Assembly: GCF_017877135.1 (NCBI RefSeq)
Contig: NZ_JAGIPH010000001.1
Span: 496,001-560,000 of the forward strand
Reading direction: 5' to 3'
DNA: 64,000 nt
Source: Neorhizobium galegae
GTDB taxonomy: Bacteria > Pseudomonadota > Alphaproteobacteria > Rhizobiales > Rhizobiaceae
The position numbers and the translations under genes were made by a program. The notes beneath the pieces are model-generated. The model was not told the DNA's origin, made no database searches, and saw only the letters and a program-made list of their open reading frames with translations. This document shows, piece by piece, positions 31,976 to 42,067 of this stretch (positions are counted from its first letter, which is position 1; each line of letters opens with the position of its first letter).

Positions 31976-32221
31976 CTAATCCTTATAGATCCCACCTCTT
32001 GGGCCGATATTGACCACGAGGACGAGGTTCGTACGTTCGTCGATGATGACCCGGTCGTCGCCGACCCGGATCCGCGCCAGCGAGCTTCCGGCCAATCGCT
32101 TCAGATCGACACGCTCCCCACGGGCGAACGCATCGACCTTCGCCTTGATGGCAGCCTCTCGCTTCGGCTGCATCCGGCTCAGGCTCTTCTTCGCGGCGTT
32201 AGAATACTCAACCGGCTTCAT
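31976..32221 (-). CDS. RelE/ParE-superfamily toxin
   Basis: An 81-residue basic protein. The C-terminal half, L-A-R-I-R-V-G-D-D-R-V-I-I-D followed by V-N-I-G-P-R-G-G-I-Y, is the RelE-fold pattern of ribosome-dependent mRNA interferases. It is co-directional with and upstream of the XRE antitoxin. The start at 32221 gives the usual M-K-P-V-E-Y-S-N beginning. A longer frame starts at 32260, but its first codons overlap the predicted promoter. Confidence 0.85.
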   Translation of the reverse strand: MKPVEYSNAAKKSLSRMQPKREAAIKAKVDAFARGERVDLKRLAGSSLARIRVGDDRVIIDERTNLVLVVNIGPRGGIYKD

Positions 32222-32227
32222 CGCATC

Positions 32228-32256
32228 AACATAGCCCACAGCTATAATTAACGCAA
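32228..32256 (-). promoter_or_regulatory. Promoter of the RelE/XRE toxin-antitoxin pair
   Basis: On the - strand, TTGCGT and TATGTT are spaced by exactly 17 bases. The -10 ends 6 bases before the toxin ATG, so the transcript would begin at or next to the start codon (leaderless). Confidence 0.45.
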
Positions 32257-32271
32257 CCATGGATTGCTGAC

Positions 32272-33922: not shown

Positions 33923-34288
33923 TCAGAGCTGATAGGGAATTCGGATACCCGGGTGCCCGGTCGGCATATCCTTGCTATCCCGGCTTACCAGGATGCGATC
34001 CTGCACCTGGGCGCTTGCCCATACAATGGCATCCGGCAGTTTCAAGCGATGCTGCCGGCGCAAGGCAACTGTCTTTTCTGCAACAGGACGGTCGATCTCA
34101 ACCAGAACGAAGCGGGCAAGGAATGCCTCAGTTGCCTCGCGGTGCGGCTCGCGCGCACCCACCATCACCTCCATCCAGGTGACCATGCTGATGGCGATGT
34201 CGTCGTAGAGGCTCATTTCCTGCCGCGCCGCCTCTATTCCGTTCAGGTAATCGATCAGGATATTGGTGTCGACAAGGGCCTTCACCAC
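33923..34288 (-). CDS. vapC: VapC-like PIN-domain toxin
   Basis: A 121-residue PIN nuclease. Acidic catalytic residues are visible in L-V-D-T-N-I-L-I-D-Y-L (N-terminus), W-M-E-V-M-V-G (about 38-44), L-P-D-A-I-V-W (about 94-100) and S-R-D-S. Its start overlaps the end of the vapB-like antitoxin gene by 7 bases, the usual VapBC arrangement. The stop codons of betA and vapC are one base apart (convergent). Confidence 0.9.
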   Translation of the reverse strand: MVKALVDTNILIDYLNGIEAARQEMSLYDDIAISMVTWMEVMVGAREPHREATEAFLARFVLVEIDRPVAEKTVALRRQHRLKLPDAIVWASAQVQDRILVSRDSKDMPTGHPGIRIPYQL

Positions 34289-34503
34289 TGCGCTCGCAAC
34301 TCGCGCTGATAGCGAAGGCCATCCTCGCTCGCTTCTTCCGATGCCCAGAGGCCGAAGGCTTCGTCAAAATCGGGCTTCACGCGTCTTTCGATCATGGCGG
34401 CGACGGCCTCGCGCACCAGTGCGCTGCGCGACACCTTTTCCTGCCGGGCAATGCGATCAAGAGCCGCAATTGCGGCATCGTCAAAATCGATGAGGGTGCG
34501 CAC
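34282..34503 (-). CDS. vapB: Ribbon-helix-helix antitoxin (VapB partner)
   Basis: A 73-residue antitoxin beginning with the RHH strand (V/M)-R-T-L-I-D-F-D-D, then a helix with R-S-A-L-V-R-E-A-V-A-A-M. The C-terminus wraps the toxin. I place the start at the GTG at 34503, because GGAGG lies 6 bases upstream and the 25-bp operator is then fully outside the gene. An ATG at 34527 would put part of the operator in the coding sequence. Confidence 0.85.
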   Translation of the reverse strand: MRTLIDFDDAAIAALDRIARQEKVSRSALVREAVAAMIERRVKPDFDEAFGLWASEEASEDGLRYQRELRAQW

Positions 34504-34516
34504 GGTAGCCTCCATG

Positions 34517-34541
34517 GCGTATATCATCGTATGATATACGC
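34517..34541. promoter_or_regulatory. vapBC operator: 11-bp perfect inverted repeat
   Basis: GCGTATATCAT-CGT-ATGATATACGC. RHH antitoxins bind such dyads to autorepress. It overlaps a - strand promoter, TTGAGG (34556-34561) and TATATC (34533-34538), spaced by 17 bases. Confidence 0.8.
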
Positions 34542-34607: not shown

Positions 34608-34637
34608 CCGACGGATTTTTGTAATTGCGGCGTTCAA
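34608..34637 (+). promoter_or_regulatory. Candidate ECF-type promoter upstream of the sigma-factor gene
   Basis: CCGACGGATTTTT, then 10 bases, then CGTTCAA. The same 13-bp block with CGTTGAA 11 bases later occurs at 36302-36332 before the DUF1800 gene. It lies about 160 bases before the chosen sigma-factor start. Confidence 0.55.
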
Positions 34638-34794
34638 CAGGCATGATGCTGACCGAAGGGTCACGATGCGGCAGGAGAATGGAGATCGCCATTCAATCGA
34701 GACGGGTGCAAGGGAACCGCGACCGGCGGGGTATCCGCATGCGCGCCGGGCCATGCTGCCCGATCGAGCGGTCTATGGACAGGTGTCTTTCCCT

Positions 34795-35346
34795 ATGAAC
34801 CCCGATCCCGATGCAGATCTCGTCAAGGCCGTGGCGTCAGGCGATGCGGCCGCCATGCGGGCGATGGTTCAGAAAAAGCTGCCGCGGCTGCTGGCGCTGG
34901 CCAGCCGCATGCTGGGCGATGCGGCGGAAGCGGAAGATGTGGCGCAGGAGACTTTTTTGCGCATCTGGAAACAGGCGGGCAGCTGGCGGCAGGGGCGTGC
35001 GCGGTTCGATACCTGGGCGCACCGGGTGGCGCTCAACCTGTGTTACGATGCGCTGCGCAAGCGGCGCGACGTGCTGGTGGCAGAGCCGCCCGAGCAGATC
35101 GATGACGCCCCCTTGCCGGATGACGGCGTTGTGGGCCGGGAAGCGGAAAGCCGGCGGGTGGAGCGCGCGCTGCAGGCCATTGCGCCGCGCCAGCGCGAGG
35201 CGATCATCCTGGTCTATTACCAGGAGATGTCGAATATCGAGGCGGCCGAGGTGATGCAGGTGAGCGTCGATGCGCTGGAAAGCCTGCTGTCGCGTGGCCG
35301 GCGCGCGTTGCAGGCCATCCTGAAGGGAGAAGACGATGACGAATGA
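34795..35346 (+). CDS. ECF-type RNA polymerase sigma factor
   Basis: A 183-residue sigma-70-family factor with only regions 2 and 4. Region 2 contains A-E-D-V-A-Q-E-T-F-L-R-I-W-K and F-D-T-W-A-H-R-V-A-L-N-L-C. Region 4 contains R-Q-R-E-A-I-I-L-V-Y-Y-Q-E-M-S-N-I-E-A-A-E-V. It overlaps the next gene by 11 bp, suggesting co-translation with its likely anti-sigma. In-frame ATGs at 34666 and 34753 are alternative starts. Regulation probably includes its own product. Confidence 0.9.
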   Translation: MNPDPDADLVKAVASGDAAAMRAMVQKKLPRLLALASRMLGDAAEAEDVAQETFLRIWKQAGSWRQGRARFDTWAHRVALNLCYDALRKRRDVLVAEPPEQIDDAPLPDDGVVGREAESRRVERALQAIAPRQREAIILVYYQEMSNIEAAEVMQVSVDALESLLSRGRRALQAILKGEDDDE

Positions 35347-35842
35347 GACGCCCCCAATGACCCCGCAGGAATTTTACGCGCTTGTCGATGCCTATGGTGC
35401 AGAGGAGCGCCGCTGGCCGAAGGAGAGGCGCGCCGCCGCCGGGAGGTTTGCCGAAACCCCGGAGGGGGCGGCCTATCTGCAAAAGGCCGCAGGGCTGGAT
35501 GCCATCCTGTCGCGTTATCAGGCACCCTCGCCTTCGCCCTCCCTTGTCGCCCGCGTGCTGCCGCCGGAAGCGCTTGCCGCAGCCTCCCGGCGTGCGACCT
35601 GGCAGAGGCGGCTGCGCGCCTCATGGATGGGGGCGGGCCTTGTCGGCCTTGGCCTTGCCGGCGGGCTGACGGGGGCTGTTGCGGTCTCCGTCATCATGCC
35701 CGGCCAGCCGTTGCCCTTTTCCGATGGCGTGGTGCCGGCCGCACTGACGCTTGGAACGGCGGGCACGGCCGAAACCGCCTTCGGCACGATTGACGGCGAA
35801 CCGGCCGGCGAGACGAATGGGATGATCGGAACGATGCAATGA
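35336..35842 (+). CDS. Single-helix membrane protein, candidate anti-sigma factor
   Basis: A 168-residue protein. A charged cytoplasmic part (about 1-95, with M-T-P-Q-E-F-Y-A-L-V-D-A-Y and E-R-R-W-P-K-E) is followed by one transmembrane helix (about 98-121, G-L-V-G-L-G-L-A-G-G-L-T-G-A-V-A-V) and a short periplasmic tail. It is not a recognisable zinc anti-sigma protein. Position and topology, like CnrY in the Cnr metal-response locus, suggest that it holds the sigma factor at the membrane. This is inference from gene order. Confidence 0.6.
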   Translation: MTNETPPMTPQEFYALVDAYGAEERRWPKERRAAAGRFAETPEGAAYLQKAAGLDAILSRYQAPSPSPSLVARVLPPEALAAASRRATWQRRLRASWMGAGLVGLGLAGGLTGAVAVSVIMPGQPLPFSDGVVPAALTLGTAGTAETAFGTIDGEPAGETNGMIGTMQ

Positions 35843-36288
35843 ACGAGACGCGTTTTCGCCGCCTGACTGTCGGCCTTCTTCTGGCCAATACCTTTCTTCT
35901 CTGCGCGCTTGCCGGTGCAGGCGCCGTCTACCTCAACGCCCGCGGTGCAGCCCCCCTCACCCGTATGCCGCTCGCCGGCGAGCAGTTGCCGAGCGATGTG
36001 CGGGGCGACTTCCAGAAGGCGCTGTCGGATGCACGCCGCGAGGTGCGTTCCACCGTGCAGGAGGCGCGCCAGGCCCGCGTCGAGGCTGCTGCCCTCATGG
36101 GCAAGCCGGTTCTGGATGCTCAGGCGCTGTCGGATGCGCTGGAGCGGGCGCGTGATGCGGAAATGGCCGTGCGGGCGGCCACGGAAAAGCGCGCCGTGGA
36201 CTTTGCCGCAGGCCTCACCCTCGATGAGCGCCGGCGCCTCGCCGACGGGTTGGTCCAGCGCGAGGCACCGCGCCCCGCCACGAAATGA
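35839..36288 (+). CDS. Periplasmic heavy-metal-sensor-like protein (CnrX/Metal_resist family)
   Basis: A 149-residue protein with one N-terminal membrane anchor (about 11-33) and an Ala/Arg/Glu-rich all-helical periplasmic domain, as in CnrX, ZraP and Spy. The expected metal-binding His or Cys residues are absent, so it may sense something else or chaperone proteins. It overlaps the preceding gene by 4 bases (ATGA), completing a sigma/anti-sigma/sensor operon. Confidence 0.78.
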   Translation: MNETRFRRLTVGLLLANTFLLCALAGAGAVYLNARGAAPLTRMPLAGEQLPSDVRGDFQKALSDARREVRSTVQEARQARVEAAALMGKPVLDAQALSDALERARDAEMAVRAATEKRAVDFAAGLTLDERRRLADGLVQREAPRPATK

Positions 36289-36301
36289 TCACATTTCAGA
36301 A

Positions 36302-36332
36302 CCGACGGATTTTTAGCGCGCTGCCCGTTGAA
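36302..36332 (+). promoter_or_regulatory. Candidate ECF-type promoter for the DUF1800-DUF1501 genes
   Basis: CCGACGGATTTTT, 11 bases, CGTTGAA, ending 32 bases before the DUF1800 ATG. It matches the motif upstream of the sigma gene, including all 13 bases of the first block. Confidence 0.6.
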
Positions 36333-36364
36333 GGAGCAGTCACGCAACGGAGTTCGGTTATCTC

Positions 36365-37993
36365 ATGGCCAATCCTCAGGATATCGATGCCGCCCTTGCG
36401 CTCTGGCGTTTCGGGCTCGGCGCACAGGAAGGCAGCATCGCTGCGATCAAGGCGGATCCGCGCGATCTGCTGAGACAGGAAATCGTCGAACAGGCGGTAC
36501 CGACGCCTGTCGGCGCGGAGCTGCGCTCTCATGCGGACCTTCTGGTCTCGCTTTACGACTACAACGAACAGGTCAAGGCCGAGCGCGAGCGCCCGCAGCC
36601 GACCCAGGTTTCCGCAAAACCCGGCGAGGCGGCAATGGCGGCTGCCGGATCTCCTCCGCCCCCATCTGCCGCAAAACCCGCAAACGCCGGCCCCGGAATG
36701 GGTGGTGCGGACATGGCCGCGGGCGCCATGGGGGCTGGGGGAATGGGCGCTGGCGGAATGGCCGGGGGTGGAATGGGTGGAGGCGCAGCGGCTCCCGGCA
36801 ACAGCGCGGGGCAGACCATGCCCGGCGCAGGGACTGCGAAACCCGCCGGGCAACAGGCCGATTCCGTCTCAAAACGCCCCTATTATCCCCAGCAGATCCT
36901 GCTTGCCGAAACAGAAGCGCGCTTCAACGGCACCATTCACCAGCCGCTGATCGGCTTTGGCGAGCGGCTGGCGCAGTTCTGGGCGAACCACTTTTCCATC
37001 GCTGTCTCCAAGGGCGGCGAGGTGCACATCCTTGCCGGCTGTTTCGAGCGGGAAGCCATCCGCCCGCATGTGTTCGGCCGTTTCGAGGATATGCTGGTGG
37101 CGGTGGAAACCCATCCGGCCATGCTGGTCTTTCTCGACAACCGCCAGTCCATCGGCCCCAATTCGCCCGCCAACAAGAACGGCAAGCGTGGCCTCAACGA
37201 AAACCTCGCCCGCGAGATCATGGAACTGCACACGCTCGGCGTCGGCAGCGGTTACTCCCAGGCCGATGTCACCTCGCTTGCCCGCATCATCACCGGCTGG
37301 ACGGTGTTTCGCGATGAGAAGAAGCCGGGCCCGCAAGGCACCTTCGTCTTCAATGCCTATGCGCATGAACCGGGCGACCATGCGGTGATGGGCATCACCT
37401 ATGCCGAAGGCGGCGAGGAACAGGGGCGCTCGGCGCTGCGCGATCTTGCCCGCCACCCGGCAACCGCCCGCCATCTCGCCACAAAACTGGTGCGCCATTT
37501 CGTGGCAGACCAGCCGCCGCCGGCACTCGTGGCAAAACTGGCCGCTGCCTATACCAAGACCGGCGGCGATCTCTCGGCGGTCTACATGGCGCTAGTCGAT
37601 GCCGAGGAAGCGTGGAACCCGCAGCTCACAAAGATCCGCACGCCACAGCAATATGTCACGGCCGTGCTGCGCACCACCGGCATCAAGCCGAAACCGCAGC
37701 AGGTCATTTCGGTGCTGAATGCGCTCGGCCAACCCTTGTGGAACCCCTCCGGGCCGAACGGTTTTTCCGACGCAAGCGACGCCTGGGCCTCCTCTGAAGG
37801 GCTTGCCACCCGCATTGATGCGGCAAGCCTGTTTGCCGGCCAGGTGCCGGCAGCCATTGATCCACGCGCCTTTGCCGGTGACCGGTTCGGGCCGCTTCTC
37901 TCCGATGACACGCTGCAAGCAATCTCCCGGGCGGAAACGCGGCCGCAAGGCCTTTCCATCGCCTTCCTTTCCCCCGAATTCCAGAGGGCCTGA
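36365..37993 (+). CDS. DUF1800 domain protein with Met/Gly-rich insert
   Basis: A 542-residue protein. The family start A-L-W-R-F-G-L-G-A is followed, from about residue 80, by a low-complexity insert rich in Pro, Gly, Ala and Met. In it, Met occurs at residues 112, 117, 122, 127, 132 and 137, exactly every fifth residue. The conserved core resumes near residue 172, with W-A-N-H-F-S and E-N-L-A-R-E-I-M-E-L-H-T-L-G. DUF1800 function is unknown; it nearly always neighbours DUF1501, as here. No signal peptide is seen. Confidence 0.88.
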   Translation: MANPQDIDAALALWRFGLGAQEGSIAAIKADPRDLLRQEIVEQAVPTPVGAELRSHADLLVSLYDYNEQVKAERERPQPTQVSAKPGEAAMAAAGSPPPPSAAKPANAGPGMGGADMAAGAMGAGGMGAGGMAGGGMGGGAAAPGNSAGQTMPGAGTAKPAGQQADSVSKRPYYPQQILLAETEARFNGTIHQPLIGFGERLAQFWANHFSIAVSKGGEVHILAGCFEREAIRPHVFGRFEDMLVAVETHPAMLVFLDNRQSIGPNSPANKNGKRGLNENLAREIMELHTLGVGSGYSQADVTSLARIITGWTVFRDEKKPGPQGTFVFNAYAHEPGDHAVMGITYAEGGEEQGRSALRDLARHPATARHLATKLVRHFVADQPPPALVAKLAAAYTKTGGDLSAVYMALVDAEEAWNPQLTKIRTPQQYVTAVLRTTGIKPKPQQVISVLNALGQPLWNPSGPNGFSDASDAWASSEGLATRIDAASLFAGQVPAAIDPRAFAGDRFGPLLSDDTLQAISRAETRPQGLSIAFLSPEFQRA

Positions 37994-37995
37994 TC

Positions 37996-39219
37996 ATGCT
38001 GTGCGAAAACATTTCTCCCACCCGCCGTGCCGTGCTCGGTGCTTCCGGCGCTCTCTTTGCCTGGGCCTTCATGCCGCGTTTTGCCCATGCGGCGGGCGGG
38101 CGTGATCCGCGCTTCGTCACCATCATCCTGCGCGGTGCGCTGGATGGGCTGACCGCGGTGCCGCCGATCGGCGATCCGAACTACGAGGGCCTGCGCCAGC
38201 AGATCGCGCTGCGGTTCGATGGCGACAAGCCGGCGCTGCCGCTCGACGGCTTTTTCGGGCTCCACCCGTCCATGCCGAAATTCCAGAAAATGTTTCAGGC
38301 AAAAGAGGCAGCCGTCGTCCATGCCAGTGCCACCGCCTATCGCGAGCGCTCGCATTTCGACGGGCAGGACGTGCTGGAATCGGGCTATTCAACGCCCGGC
38401 CATGTGGAAACCGGCTGGCTGAACCGCCTGCTGGAAGGCCTGCCGGCCGGCGAAAAGATCGCCCCCGGCGCCTCTGAGCGGGTGCGCGGGCTGTCGGTCG
38501 GCGCCAATGCGCCGCTCGTCATCCGCGGCAAGGCGCCGGTGCTCGGCTGGGCGCCCTCTGTGCTGAAGGCCGCCGATGGCGATCTTGCCCCGCGCCTTGC
38601 CCAGCTTTACGGCAAGACCGATCCGCTCCTGTCGGAGCTTTTGAAGGAAGGCATCGAAACCGGCAAGATCGCCTCCGGCCTCGACGTGAAGGCACGCGGC
38701 GGACCGGGCGATCCGAACGGCATGGAGCAGATGGCACGCGGGGCGGCACGGCTTCTCGCACAACCGGAGGGACCGCGCGTCGCAGCCCTTGCCTTTGAAG
38801 GCTGGGACACGCATGCGCAGGAAACAGAGCGTCTGGCAAAACTCCTGTCAGGCCTCGATAATTCGCTCGCCGCCTTCCGCGAGGAACTGGGGCCGGTGTG
38901 GAAGGATACCGCCATTGTGGTCGCCACCGAATTTGGCCGCACCGCCCGCATCAACGGTACCGAAGGCACAGACCACGGCACCGGCACCACGGCCTTCCTG
39001 GCCGGCGGGGCGGTCGCCGGTGGCCGCGTCATCACCGACTGGCCGGGCCTCAAGGACAGCCAGCTGTTTGAAGCCCGCGACCTTGCCGCCACCACCGATA
39101 TCCGCGCGGTGGTGAAGGGCATGGCGGTCGATCTCTTAGGCGCCAGTGCCGGCCATCTGGCCGATGTCGTCTTCCCCGGCTCGCAAGCCGTTCAGCCGAT
39201 GAAGGGGCTGATCGTCTGA
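37996..39219 (+). CDS. DUF1501 domain protein, Tat-exported
   Basis: A 407-residue protein. A twin-arginine signal T-R-R-A-V-L-G-A-S-G-A-L-F-A-W-A ends A-H-A near residue 32. The mature part resembles the sulfatase/phosphatase-like DUF1501 fold, with S-H-F-D-G-Q-D near residue 118, E-F-G-R-T near 314 and D-H-G-T-G-T-T near 327. It starts two bases after the DUF1800 stop, so the two are co-transcribed. The function of the pair is unknown. Confidence 0.9.
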   Translation: MLCENISPTRRAVLGASGALFAWAFMPRFAHAAGGRDPRFVTIILRGALDGLTAVPPIGDPNYEGLRQQIALRFDGDKPALPLDGFFGLHPSMPKFQKMFQAKEAAVVHASATAYRERSHFDGQDVLESGYSTPGHVETGWLNRLLEGLPAGEKIAPGASERVRGLSVGANAPLVIRGKAPVLGWAPSVLKAADGDLAPRLAQLYGKTDPLLSELLKEGIETGKIASGLDVKARGGPGDPNGMEQMARGAARLLAQPEGPRVAALAFEGWDTHAQETERLAKLLSGLDNSLAAFREELGPVWKDTAIVVATEFGRTARINGTEGTDHGTGTTAFLAGGAVAGGRVITDWPGLKDSQLFEARDLAATTDIRAVVKGMAVDLLGASAGHLADVVFPGSQAVQPMKGLIV

Positions 39220-39440
39220 CGGGAGGCCGCTGCCGGTCTCATCCCCTGCCCCGAGACCGGCAGCCGCTCATCTGGAACCGTCAACAGGGCGCCATTCGGA
39301 GGCTATTTCCCTTTGAAAAGGGCAAATCTGCCTTTAAGATCCGTCATATAAGCCGCATCGCTGCGGGATAAGGCTTGCATCCCCCTGCATCGGAGGCGTT
39401 AAAGGGGCCTGCCTTTCCGAAAATAAGCCCCGAGCCTGCC

Positions 39441-40784
39441 ATGCCCCTTTCCTATCGCAAGTCCAGAATGTTTCGCCGGTCGCGCGTCATGCGCGGGTCA
39501 TGGCGGGTGTGGAAGCCGCGCATCGTATTCTGGATCGGGGCGGTGGCGATCGGGGTGGTAAGTGTCGGCTTTGCCATGGCCGCCGATCAGGCGCAGCATC
39601 TGTTCAAGGCGCTGACCTCGGCCGGGCCTTACGCCTTCCTCCTGCCGCTTCTTCTGACGCCGGCGGGGTTTGCGCTCAGTGCCTTCATGGCGCTCTCCTG
39701 GTTTCCCAATGCGCAGGGCAGCGGCATTCCGCAGGCGATTGCGGCGCGGCACCTGAGCCATGATACGGCCCGCGGTGCCCTGTTGTCGCTGAAGCTTGCC
39801 GTCGGCAAGGTCATCCTCACGATTGTCGGACTGTTCTGCGGTGCTTCCATCGGGCGCGAGGGGCCGACCGTGCAGGTAGGCGCGGCAATCATGCTGGCAA
39901 GCGGTCGCATCGGCGGCATGGCGCAGGCGAAGGGGCTCATCCTTGCCGGTTCGGCGGCCGGTATCGCTGCGGCCTTCAACACGCCGCTTGCCGGCATCGT
40001 CTTTGCCATCGAGGAAATGAGCCGCAGTTTCGAATCCCGCGCCAACGGGCTGGTGCTGGCCGCCGTTATCCTGTCCGGCCTTGCAGCGCTCGGCCTTGTC
40101 GGCAGCTACACCTATTTTGGCGAAACCTCCGTTGCCGCCTCGGGCACGCGCGACTGGCTGCTGGTGCTCGTCTGCGGGCTGGCGGGCGGCGGGCTGGGCG
40201 CCTGCTTCAGCGCCGGCGCACTTTCCGTTGCGCGCCGCGTGCGCCGTTTCGTGCAGCCGAACCCGCTGAAGAAGACGGTGATGCTGGCGTCCGTCTGCGG
40301 GCTGGTCGTCGCCGTCATCGGCATTTTTTCGCACGGCCAGACCTTTGGAACCGGCTATGAACAATCGCGCGCCATCCTGAACGGCGAGGCGCCCGATCCC
40401 TTGCTCTTCCTCGAAAAATTCGCCTCCACCTTCCTCTCCATGGCCTCCGGCATTCCCGGCGGCATCTTTGCCCCGTCGCTGACGGTCGGCGTCAGCCTCG
40501 GGGGAACGCTGGCCGGCCTCATCGGCGGCAATATCGCGCTCGGCGCCATTCTCGGCATGGCGGGCTATTTTGCCGGCGTCGTGCAGGCACCGATGACCGC
40601 CTTCGTCATCATCATCGAAATGACCGGCAACCATCAGGCCGTCATCCCGATCATGGCTGCCTCGATGCTTGGTTACGTGACGTCCCGCATCATCAGCCCG
40701 GAACCGCTCTATCACGGCCTGTCGCGGGCGTTTCTGGCTCAGGCCCTGCGCGCCCAGCGCAACGAGCAGCGCGCCCTTCCGTGA
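39441..40784 (+). CDS. ClC-family chloride channel/antiporter
   Basis: A 447-residue ClC protein. The selectivity motifs are present: G-S-G-I-P-Q (GSGIP), G-R-E-G-P-T-V-Q with the gating Glu, and S-G-I-P-G-G-I-F-A-P-S-L. I-E-E-M after F-A keeps the internal proton Glu typical of Cl-/H+ exchangers. About ten or more membrane helices, and no CBS domains. Likely functions in anion homeostasis or acid resistance. No strong ribosome-binding site is seen at this ATG. Confidence 0.9.
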   Translation: MPLSYRKSRMFRRSRVMRGSWRVWKPRIVFWIGAVAIGVVSVGFAMAADQAQHLFKALTSAGPYAFLLPLLLTPAGFALSAFMALSWFPNAQGSGIPQAIAARHLSHDTARGALLSLKLAVGKVILTIVGLFCGASIGREGPTVQVGAAIMLASGRIGGMAQAKGLILAGSAAGIAAAFNTPLAGIVFAIEEMSRSFESRANGLVLAAVILSGLAALGLVGSYTYFGETSVAASGTRDWLLVLVCGLAGGGLGACFSAGALSVARRVRRFVQPNPLKKTVMLASVCGLVVAVIGIFSHGQTFGTGYEQSRAILNGEAPDPLLFLEKFASTFLSMASGIPGGIFAPSLTVGVSLGGTLAGLIGGNIALGAILGMAGYFAGVVQAPMTAFVIIIEMTGNHQAVIPIMAASMLGYVTSRIISPEPLYHGLSRAFLAQALRAQRNEQRALP

Positions 40785-40844: not shown

Positions 40845-41032
40845 GCGTGATTGTTTTTATTTGCGCGGCCGGTTTGCTTCTGTAAGCATAACCAGCATGG
40901 GGGAAGGATGCGACCGTGGAGGGGTCCGTCCGGTTCGGGACATGGCACGGGGCCCATCGAGGCACCGGAAGCCGCCGGCAGGATGGAACAGCAGCAGATC
41001 TCCCCTGACATTCAGCGCGATTGGAGGAGATC

Positions 41033-42067
41033 ATGTTGCGCAAGTTTCTGTTGGCCGGGCTAGCCGGTGCCGCCGTTTCCCTGACATCCTACGCGGCCTT
41101 TGCCGCTGACGTGGTGCTGAAACTGCACCATTTCCTGCCGCCGCAGGCGACCATTCCCTCCAAGGTGCTGACACCGTGGGCGGAAAAGATCAAGGCCGAC
41201 AGCGGCGGCCGCCTGCAGGTGGAAATCTATCCGGCCATGCAGCTGGGCGGCAAGCCCGGTGAAATCGTCGACCAGGTCAAGGACGGCGTGGTGGATCTCG
41301 GCTGGACGCTGATCGGTTATACGCCGGGCCGCTTCCCCAAATCTGAAGCCTTTGAGCTGCCCTTCATGGTGACGACCGGCGAGGCCACCTCGCTTGCCTT
41401 CAACGATTACTACGAAAAGCACCTGAAGGACGAGTTCAAGGACTTTCACGTTCTGGCCGTCCACACCCATGGGCCGGGCCTTCTGCACACGATTGCCGCC
41501 AAGCCGATCAAGTCCCTGTCCGACATGAACGGGCTGAAACTGCGCGGCACTTCCAAGGTGGTCAACCAGATGCTGGAAGCCATGGGCGCCTCTGCCGTCG
41601 GCATGCCGGTGACGACGGTTCCGGAATCGCTGTCGAAGAGCGTCATCGACGGCACGGTCGTTCCCTGGGAAGTGACGCCGTCGATCAAGATTGCCGAACT
41701 TGCGCCCAACCATACGGGCTTTTCCGGCAAGACCGGGCTTTACACGGCCGCCTTCGTCTTTGCCATGAACAAGGACAGCTATGACGCGCTGCCGGCGGAT
41801 CTGAAAAAGGTGCTGGACGACAATTCCGGTGCAGCGCTCGCCGCCAAGTTCGGCGCCGCCATGGATGCCGGCGACGTGCGCGGCAAGGAACTGGCCGACA
41901 AGGCCGGCAACAAGACCTATGTGCTGGACGAGGCCGAAACCGCCCGCTGGAAGGCCATCGGCGACAAGGTGACCCAGAAATGGGTGGCGGAAATGGATGG
42001 CAAGGGCCTCAATGGCACCGCGCTTTACAAGGACGCAATCTCGATGATTGCCGCCCACTCGAAGTAA
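41033..42067 (+). CDS. TRAP transporter solute-binding protein (DctP family)
   Basis: A 344-residue periplasmic binding protein. The signal peptide ends A-F-A-A near residue 22. The mature protein has the DctP features L-K-L-H-H-F-L-P-P, L-G-G-K-P-G-E-I-V-D-Q-V and K-L-R-G-T-S-K-V. It delivers a substrate, usually a carboxylate, to the DctQM membrane units encoded just downstream. The ligand cannot be read from sequence. GGAGGAG precedes the ATG. Confidence 0.92.
   Translation: MLRKFLLAGLAGAAVSLTSYAAFAADVVLKLHHFLPPQATIPSKVLTPWAEKIKADSGGRLQVEIYPAMQLGGKPGEIVDQVKDGVVDLGWTLIGYTPGRFPKSEAFELPFMVTTGEATSLAFNDYYEKHLKDEFKDFHVLAVHTHGPGLLHTIAAKPIKSLSDMNGLKLRGTSKVVNQMLEAMGASAVGMPVTTVPESLSKSVIDGTVVPWEVTPSIKIAELAPNHTGFSGKTGLYTAAFVFAMNKDSYDALPADLKKVLDDNSGAALAAKFGAAMDAGDVRGKELADKAGNKTYVLDEAETARWKAIGDKVTQKWVAEMDGKGLNGTALYKDAISMIAAHSK

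What the first reader, a model, noticed from the sequence alone, without database searches (positions are those of the whole stretch)
34608..39219. ECF sigma / candidate anti-sigma / periplasmic sensor operon linked to DUF1800-DUF1501 by a shared promoter motif
The sequence shows CCGACGGATTTTT at 34608-34620 and again at 36302-36314, each followed 10 or 11 bases later by CGTTCAA or CGTTGAA. One lies before the sigma gene, the other 32 bases before the DUF1800 gene. The intervening genes encode a one-helix membrane protein and a Metal_resist-type periplasmic protein, an order like CnrH-CnrY-CnrX. ECF factors usually autoregulate, so the simplest reading is a sensory module whose output is the DUF1800-DUF1501 pair, proteins of unknown function. 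The inferred metal signal is uncertain because the sensor lacks obvious His/Cys ligands.
Basis: partly seen in the sequence, partly recalled or inferred. Interest (0 to 1): 0.75.

Follow-up and report, generated by a model that had tools for sequence, protein, structure and literature searches.

The report
Sigma switch for DUF1800-DUF1501 pair
A small sensing unit in the bacterial envelope appears to switch on itself and a neighbouring pair of proteins of unknown function through one shared promoter, which gives a way to find out what that pair does.

Summary
CCGACGGATTTTT occurs exactly twice in the window's 5.2-Mb genome, before the ECF sigma operon and before DUF1800-DUF1501; the two-block site also matches only there. 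Relatives sharpen it to CGACGGA-N15/16-CGTT(C/G)AA; the T run is not conserved. It lies upstream of DUF1800 (0-2 mismatches) in all 12 examined loci whose source carries a close sigma orthologue, and not upstream of DUF1800 in the 17 genomes checked that lack one. In two of the 12 the sigma-anti-sigma-sensor triad lies on another contig, so the link holds in trans. The -35 block is invariant while flanks are at background. In five genomes of three other families the pair sits directly behind the sensor. The sensor resembles CnrX/ZraP but lacks conserved His/Cys, so metal sensing is not supported. Many relatives add a secreted EF-hand gene, as beside Caulobacter SigV. Best reading: an autoregulated envelope-stress ECF module whose main output here is Tat-exported DUF1501 with DUF1800. 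The evidence is comparative; autoregulation is less uniform than the DUF1800 link, and I have no expression data for this organism.

The parts
34608..34637 (+). Conserved blocks: -35 CGACGGA 34609-34615, -10 CGTTCAA 34631-34637; predicted to drive the sigma operon
   Evidence: site before sigma, or before an EF-hand gene that leads into sigma, in most relatives
34795..35346 (+). ECF sigma factor, 183 aa from the ATG at 34795 (start inferred)
   Evidence: Pfam Sigma70_r2 1.1e-21 and Sigma70_r4_2 3.1e-12; NCBIfam NF004113 285 bits, cut-off 208
35336..35842 (+). Predicted anti-sigma factor: 168 aa, N-terminal part with AYGAEERRWP, one membrane helix read by eye; overlaps sigma by 11 bases
   Evidence: no Pfam/NCBIfam hit; same position in 12 of 12 loci; alignment; anti-sigma role inferred from position
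35839..36288 (+). Periplasmic sensor, Metal_resist/CnrX-like, N-terminal membrane anchor, no His, only Cys in the anchor
   Evidence: Pfam PF13801 2.3e-21; predicted helix pattern, low confidence; weak structural matches to NccX, CnrX, ZraP
36302..36332 (+). Conserved blocks: -35 CGACGGA 36303-36309, -10 CGTTGAA 36326-36332; predicted to drive DUF1800-DUF1501
   Evidence: 12 of 12 sigma-positive loci; -35 invariant, flanks at background
36365..37993 (+). DUF1800 protein, 542 aa, no signal peptide evident by eye
   Evidence: Pfam PF08811 7.4e-120
37996..39219 (+). DUF1501 protein, 407 aa, twin-arginine signal, conserved D50, H120, D271, H273, E312, H327
   Evidence: Pfam PF07394 3.5e-36; conservation over 33 loci, R10 and R11 included

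Best explanation
A three-gene ECF module (sigma, one-helix anti-sigma, CnrX-like periplasmic sensor) activates its own operon and the adjacent DUF1800-DUF1501 operon through one promoter type, CGACGGA-N15/16-CGTT(C/G)AA. Shown by comparison: the promoter, its conservation, its co-occurrence with this sigma in cis and in trans, and direct operon fusion of the pair to the module in other families. Inferred: the anti-sigma holds sigma at the membrane; the sensor detects an envelope change (not a metal held by His/Cys), releases sigma, and the response raises the module itself plus a Tat-exported, possibly metal-dependent hydrolase-like protein (DUF1501) with its partner DUF1800. In this genome the exact site marks only these two operons; weaker variants cannot be told from background.
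For: Only two exact sites in the genome, both here. DUF1800 promoter present in 12 of 12 loci with a close sigma orthologue (55-100% identical), with 0-2 mismatches and below all 200 shuffles each time. Upstream of DUF1800 the best match has 3 or more mismatches in all 17 checked genomes whose best sigma hit is at most 37% identical. G113 and G009 have the site before DUF1800 and the intact triad on another contig, at 70-71% sigma identity. -35 pairwise identity 1.00, -10 0.84, flanks 0.29-0.35 over 45 pairs. Class scan: 33 of 46 genomes with the site carry a sigma hit, against 82 of 339 without it, odds ratio 8; reversed control 13 of 28, odds ratio 2. Five of 20 fetched class loci have DUF1800-DUF1501 directly behind the sensor. 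Independent: 5' RACE of the Caulobacter EF-hand gene cabp beside sigV gives GGAAA-13 nt-CGTTCA (PMC13171946), the same geometry as GGAAA-N13-CGTT in L046. The Azospirillum rpoE8 operon (sigma, hypothetical, periplasmic heavy metal sensor) is activated by RpoE8, and also by RpoE6, in E. coli (PMC12826043).
Against: No expression data for this organism. Promoters before sigma are less regular: G113 and G009 keep the -35 but have a weak -10 (3 mismatches), L045 likewise (4 mismatches counted by eye), L058 has no clear site right before sigma, and L009 is cut off there. The five fused loci (L244-L248) and L262 show no site with 2 or fewer mismatches, so distant members either use another sequence or none was recognised. 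Sites with 2 mismatches also arise by chance: 5 on the sense strand in the 21 loci without adjacent sigma. For Caulobacter, the sigV promoter itself is given in PMC13171946 as GGAAGCTTCG-16-GCTTCA, not this geometry, and both genes are called SigT-dependent there. Genomes are related, so the Fisher figures overstate independence. Sensor mechanism and anti-sigma role are inferred from order and fold only.
Confidence: 0.82

Rival explanations
1. The shared motif is read by another ECF sigma, most plausibly the alphaproteobacterial general stress factor EcfG, and its nearness to this sigma gene is incidental.
For: The -10 CGTT is shared with EcfG promoters (recalled consensus GGAAC-N16/17-CGTT); the window genome holds 10 matches to the sigma profile, so other ECFs exist; in Caulobacter the sigV and cabp promoters are reported as dependent on SigT (PMC13171946).
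Against: The distance from GGA to CGT is 18-19 bases in the 12 family sites, against 21-22 in the recalled EcfG consensus. The motif before DUF1800 tracks this sigma, not ECFs in general: 17 genomes with other ECF-like hits but no close orthologue lack it there. None of the S. meliloti ECF promoters seen in passages of PMC6180224 looks like it.
Confidence: 0.07
2. A metal-resistance system of the CnrYXH kind that senses nickel, cobalt or a like metal and drives export.
For: Same gene kinds; the sensor model weakly resembles NccX, CnrX and ZraP.
Against: No His in the window's sensor and no conserved His or Cys in 12 sensors. Neither of the two exact sites in the genome precedes an efflux operon. 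DUF1800 and DUF1501 match no transporter family.
Confidence: 0.06
3. Coincidence or a small duplicated segment; no regulatory link.
For: Two sites only; the looser pattern is not specific.
Against: Flanks of the two copies are unrelated. The site is conserved before diverged orthologues with all seven -35 bases kept and appears before DUF1800 where the triad lies elsewhere.
Confidence: 0.02
4. The sigma mainly serves secreted calcium-binding (EF-hand) and other envelope genes; DUF1800-DUF1501 is one accessory target.
For: EF-hand genes lead into sigma in 4 of 12 family loci and 13 of 20 class loci. An unlinked EF-hand gene carries the site in G028 and G127. EF-hand matches in 7 of 50 frames downstream of class sites, 0 of 22 in the control.
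Against: The EF-hand difference is not significant alone (p 0.09), the 50 were picked from 62 by my judgement, and the 20 class loci were not drawn at random. The window genome has no third exact site. No EF-hand gene lies next to the sigma in the window.
Confidence: 0.3

Closest known systems
Caulobacter vibrioides SigV-CaBP (CCNA_02837/CCNA_02838), PMC13171946
   Same: ECF sigma beside a secreted EF-hand gene, as in 13 of 20 class loci fetched here; RACE-mapped cabp promoter GGAAA-N13-CGTTCA has the same spacing as the motif here; mutual positive regulation reported.
   Different: No EF-hand gene beside the sigma in the window. The published sigV promoter has a different sequence and spacing, and both promoters are assigned to a SigT/SigU-like consensus. 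The sections I read do not describe an anti-sigma, sensor or DUF1800-DUF1501. Sequence orthology was not tested here.
Azospirillum brasilense RpoE8 operon (AMK58_24940-24950), PMC12826043
   Same: Sigma, hypothetical protein, periplasmic heavy metal sensor in one operon activated by its own sigma.
   Different: Also activated by RpoE6; its function is stated as unknown; no DUF1800-DUF1501 link in the passages read; sequences not compared here.
CnrYXH / NccYXH of Cupriavidus metallidurans (partly recalled)
   Same: ECF sigma, one-helix anti-sigma, membrane-anchored periplasmic sensor of the same fold class.
   Different: No His in the sensor; target is DUF1800-DUF1501, not an RND efflux pump.
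DUF1800-DUF1501 pairs linked to bacterial chitin synthase genes (PMC5122149)
   Same: Same adjacent pair, DUF1501 with a twin-arginine signal.
   Different: That pair is tied to chs genes; no sigma link in the passages read.

Membership tests
NF004113 (PRK05602) RNA polymerase sigma factor | score above curated cut-off of 208 bits | tested here: met
   285 bits; only match over the cut-off in the genome
CnrYXH-type metal-responsive ECF system | sigma, one-helix anti-sigma and anchored periplasmic sensor in one operon | tested here: met
   membrane helices read by eye from sequence
CnrYXH-type metal-responsive ECF system | sensor with CnrX/NccX fold | tested here: inconclusive
   Metal_resist 2.3e-21; Foldseek first hit NccX, further CnrX and ZraP, but all E above 0.5 and model pLDDT 58
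CnrYXH-type metal-responsive ECF system | metal ligands (His/Met, recalled) in the sensor | tested here: not met
   no His in the window sensor, no conserved His or Cys in 12 sensors
CnrYXH-type metal-responsive ECF system | control of an RND efflux operon | tested here: not met
   only two exact sites in the genome, before sigma and before DUF1800
Caulobacter SigV-CaBP type | EF-hand gene adjacent to the sigma gene | tested here: not met
   not found next to the window's sigma; present in 4 of 12 family loci and 13 of 20 class loci
Caulobacter SigV-CaBP type | promoter geometry as mapped for cabp (GGAAA-N13-CGTTCA) | tested here: met
   GGATT-N13/14-CGTT in the window, GGAAA-N13-CGTT in L046; TSS data from PMC13171946; the sigV promoter in that paper does not fit
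Caulobacter SigV-CaBP type | sequence orthology to CCNA_02837 | not tested
   Caulobacter sequence not fetched; one search says only that 1 of 14 control genomes passes NF004113's cut-off and that Caulobacter is among the 10 with any match
EcfG general stress sigma | promoter GGAAC-N16/17-CGTT (recalled) | tested here: not met
   GGA to CGT is 18-19 bases in all 12 family sites
Zinc-binding (ZAS) anti-sigma | HxxxCxxC motif (recalled) | tested here: not met
   no such motif seen in the alignment of 12
Alkaline-phosphatase-like superfamily (DUF1501; placement recalled) | conserved Asp/His metal-binding set | tested here: inconclusive
   D50, H120, D271, H273, E312, H327 conserved in at least 97% of 33, but the model failed (pLDDT 30) and no solved relative was found by sequence

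The most novel reading that the evidence does not exclude
An alphaproteobacterial envelope-stress ECF family (SigV-like, often with a secreted EF-hand protein, hence possibly calcium or acid responsive) has DUF1800-DUF1501 as a dedicated effector: DUF1501 is a Tat-exported metallo-hydrolase that carries signal-less DUF1800 across the membrane, and the pair repairs or remodels an envelope polymer. This would give a first physiological setting for the pair.
Probability: 0.3. Interest if true: 0.75.

Novelty: new variant of a known kind. Interest (0 to 1): 0.6.

Why it matters
DUF1800 relatives occur in 76 of 385 sampled class genomes, and my literature searches found no role for the DUF1800-DUF1501 pair. 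Tying the pair to one sigma, one promoter sequence and one sensor makes its induction condition and function directly testable. It also gives an ECF module that resembles the little-studied SigV of Caulobacter and RpoE8 of Azospirillum a predicted promoter and target set.

Tried and rejected
This looked like a refutation until the invariant block CGACGGA was found. The short pattern CGACGGA-N-CGTT is not specific in the window genome. Sequence searches of solved structures for DUF1501, DUF1800 and the sensor gave no meaningful match. The DUF1501 model from two near-identical sequences was useless. A viral-contig scan with DUF1800 returned no relative. One literature passage lists DUF1800 and DUF1501 in a table of Xanthomonas type VI secretion genes (PMC6653060), and passages of a review on unusual ECFs (PMC8999054) added nothing. 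EcfG control, segment duplication and metal sensing were considered and set aside as above.
Full report
Observation. The exact 13-mer is found twice in the 5.2-Mb genome, both here. The flanks of the two copies are unrelated (10% and 22% identity).

Genes. Pfam confirms the ECF sigma (34795-35346), Metal_resist (35839-36288), DUF1800 (36365-37993) and DUF1501 (37996-39219). The sigma is NF004113 at 285 bits. The middle protein (35336-35842) has no family match. Gene overlaps (11 and 4 bases) and the 2-base gap between DUF1800 and DUF1501 suggest two tight operons.

First look at conservation. One contig found by protein search, a Rhizobiaceae MAG (L009), holds the same operon with CGACGGATTGTT...CGTTGAA before DUF1800, which showed that the T run is dispensable.

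Family test. DUF1800 was found in 35 of 198 family genomes. I fetched loci from 30 of the 34 others plus a second copy in the window's genome (G120, G054, G157 and G163 were not fetched). Eight of these 31 loci have sigma, anti-sigma and sensor in the same order upstream, as do L009 and the window. In all ten, CGACGGA-N15/16-CGTTNAA lies upstream of the DUF1800 unit with 0 or 1 mismatch to the consensus; in L046 and L047 it precedes a small secreted-protein gene between the sensor and DUF1800. Two further loci, G113 and G009, have the site before DUF1800 (1 and 2 mismatches) but no sigma nearby. A sigma search then found a 70-71% identical orthologue with its anti-sigma and sensor on another contig in both. 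Sigma identity to the window over the 12 runs from 55 to 100%. Seventeen of the 20 other genomes behind the remaining 21 loci were searched for the sigma; their best hits are at most 37% identical, and upstream of DUF1800 none has a site with fewer than 3 mismatches. G029, G017 and G145 were not searched for the sigma; the best match before their DUF1800 has 5 mismatches. The one exception among the 21 is the second DUF1800 copy in the window's own genome (L072, 2 mismatches, shuffle p 0.04); that genome does have the sigma, so this may be real or chance.

Footprint. Over ten promoters (L009 and L054 dropped as near copies) pairwise identity is 1.00 in the -35 block, 0.84 in the -10, 0.33 in the spacer, 0.35 upstream and 0.29 downstream. 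This is what selection on a promoter looks like.

Autoregulation. The site is directly before sigma in the window, L051 and L054 (0 mismatches). G113 and G009 keep the -35 but have a weak -10 (3 mismatches), and so does L045 (4 mismatches, by eye). In L046, L047 and L059 (1 mismatch) and L057 (2 mismatches) it is before an EF-hand gene that leads into sigma. L058 has no clear site right before sigma, and L009 is cut off. Chance yardstick: sites with 2 or fewer mismatches occur 5 times on the sense strand of the 21 loci without adjacent sigma.

Genome-wide specificity. In 28 family genomes the pattern CGACGGA-N15/16-CGTTNAA gives 21 sites in the 11 sigma-positive genomes (reversed control 6), 16 of them in the module region; the 17 sigma-negative genomes give 8 (reversed control 6). 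Of the 5 extra sites in sigma-positive genomes, the conserved pair in G028 and G127 precedes an unlinked EF-hand gene; for the other three (two in G155, one in G073) I recognised no target of the module's kind. In G088 the site pointing away from the module, counted among the 16, precedes a small GCG/WWDG secreted protein.

Class scan. The pattern with CGTTSAA is present in 46 of 385 genomes, 67 sites, two of them the window's; the reversed control in 28 of 372 genomes, 29 sites. Sigma hits (E at most 1e-30) occur in 115 of 385 genomes: 33 of 46 site-bearing genomes against 82 of 339 others (odds ratio 8, p 4e-10), versus 13 of 28 for the control (odds ratio 2.1, p 0.09). DUF1800 (E at most 1e-40) is in 76 of 385 and overlaps with the sigma in 40 (odds ratio 3.5). 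Relatedness makes these p values optimistic. Sites found without any protein query precede sigma, an EF-hand gene or DUF1800 in L105, L107, L121, L124, L131, L134, L135 and L145; in L112 the site lies at the end of the sigma frame and is not counted. G202 has the site before both sigma and a DUF1800-DUF1501 pair about 30 kb away. The 65 non-window sites gave 62 distinct downstream frames (two of them one gene; three sites had none). I gave 50 to Pfam and left out 12 by my own judgement: 7 EF-hand, 4 17-kDa antigen type, 3 YHYH, 3 HlyD. The 29 control sites gave 22 frames, all scanned, with none of these families; EF-hand 7 of 50 against 0 of 22 has p 0.09.

Operon fusion elsewhere. I fetched 20 class loci from the 114 non-window genomes with a sigma hit: the five with DUF1800 nearby, G202, and 14 others from high in the hit list, not a random draw. 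The five (L244-L248; families f89, f130, f40) have DUF1800-DUF1501 straight behind the sensor; in L248 my anti-sigma profile found no match. Thirteen of 20 have an EF-hand gene before sigma. In 10 of these 13 a site with 2 or fewer mismatches precedes the EF-hand frame, and in an 11th (L250) it overlaps the frame's start; L249 has an exact site before sigma; L253 and L263 have one within the start of the long sigma frame. No such site was found in L244-L248 or L262, so promoter recognition probably drifts in distant members.

Sensor and anti-sigma. The sensor's predicted shape, at low confidence, is an anchor helix plus a helical hairpin. Among weak Foldseek matches the first is NccX, with ZraP and CnrX following among unrelated helical proteins (all E above 0.5). 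The 12 sensors share no His or Cys. The 12 anti-sigmas share F..L...YG.....WP and a membrane helix but no zinc motif. Signal release by partner binding is inference from the Cnr system.

DUF1501 has two arginines conserved at positions 10-11, and a loose twin-arginine pattern matched 33 of 33 loci; conserved Asp/His/Glu residues would suit a metal site. Membership in the alkaline-phosphatase-like superfamily is recalled, not shown. DUF1800 in the window begins without an evident signal, so export with DUF1501 is a guess.

Literature. PMC13171946 (abstract and sections 3, 18, 19, 32 read) describes Caulobacter sigV beside the EF-hand gene cabp, with a RACE-mapped cabp promoter GGAAA-13-CGTTCA; its sigV promoter has another sequence and spacing, and both are called SigT-dependent. 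PMC12826043 (passages) reports the rpoE8 operon with a periplasmic heavy metal sensor, activated by RpoE8 and RpoE6, function unknown. PMC6180224 (passages) lists S. meliloti ECF promoters, none like this in what I saw. PMC5122149 (passages) links DUF1800-DUF1501 to chitin synthase. PMC6653060 (one passage) lists both domains in a table of Xanthomonas type VI secretion genes. Full-text searches combining DUF1800/DUF1501 with ECF or extracytoplasmic terms listed no other paper that appeared to tie the pair to an ECF sigma; only open-licence PMC papers are covered, two listed papers (PMC4982196, PMC7563939) were seen as listings only, and the ECF reclassification paper is not held.

Verdict. Shown: promoter, conservation, co-occurrence. 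Inferred: direct activation, sensor mechanism, signal, effector chemistry.

Noticed in passing
window 33923-34288 (-) and 34282-34527 (-): A PIN-domain protein and a ribbon-helix-helix protein (VapC/VapB-like toxin-antitoxin pair), divergent from the sigma operon; the pair's 5' end is 80 bases from the sigma promoter.
   Followed up: no
window 31976-32260 (-): A 94-aa frame that reads like a RelE/ParE-type toxin by eye; no Pfam match at E 0.01.
   Followed up: no
window 39375-40784 (+): A CLC chloride channel follows DUF1501 in both the window and L009 (93% identical); no such match in the other 31 fetched family stretches.
   Followed up: partly
L072 (G000 contig 3, about 172-176 kb): A second DUF1800-DUF1501 pair in the same genome, with only a 2-mismatch site 368 bases upstream of the open frame.
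   Followed up: partly
L111, L127 (G440 contig 14, the same place): Two identical 29-base promoter-like sites CGACGGAAACACATCCCCTCCCCGTTCAA 155 bases apart in one class genome; downstream gene not identified.
   Followed up: no
L090, L091, L116 (three genomes of one genus): Similar proteins directly downstream of the site in each; L091 is a YHYH-domain protein and 3 of 50 scanned frames match YHYH, a further candidate target.
   Followed up: partly
L046 4527-4814, L058 2590-2901, L287 1582-1857: Small secreted-looking proteins with a GCG..H...G.C.P region and W-rich or His/Trp-rich tails, no Pfam match, downstream of the site (2 mismatches in L058) in family genomes.
   Followed up: partly
window 41021-42067 (+): DctP-type TRAP solute-binding protein, E 1.6e-43.
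   Followed up: no
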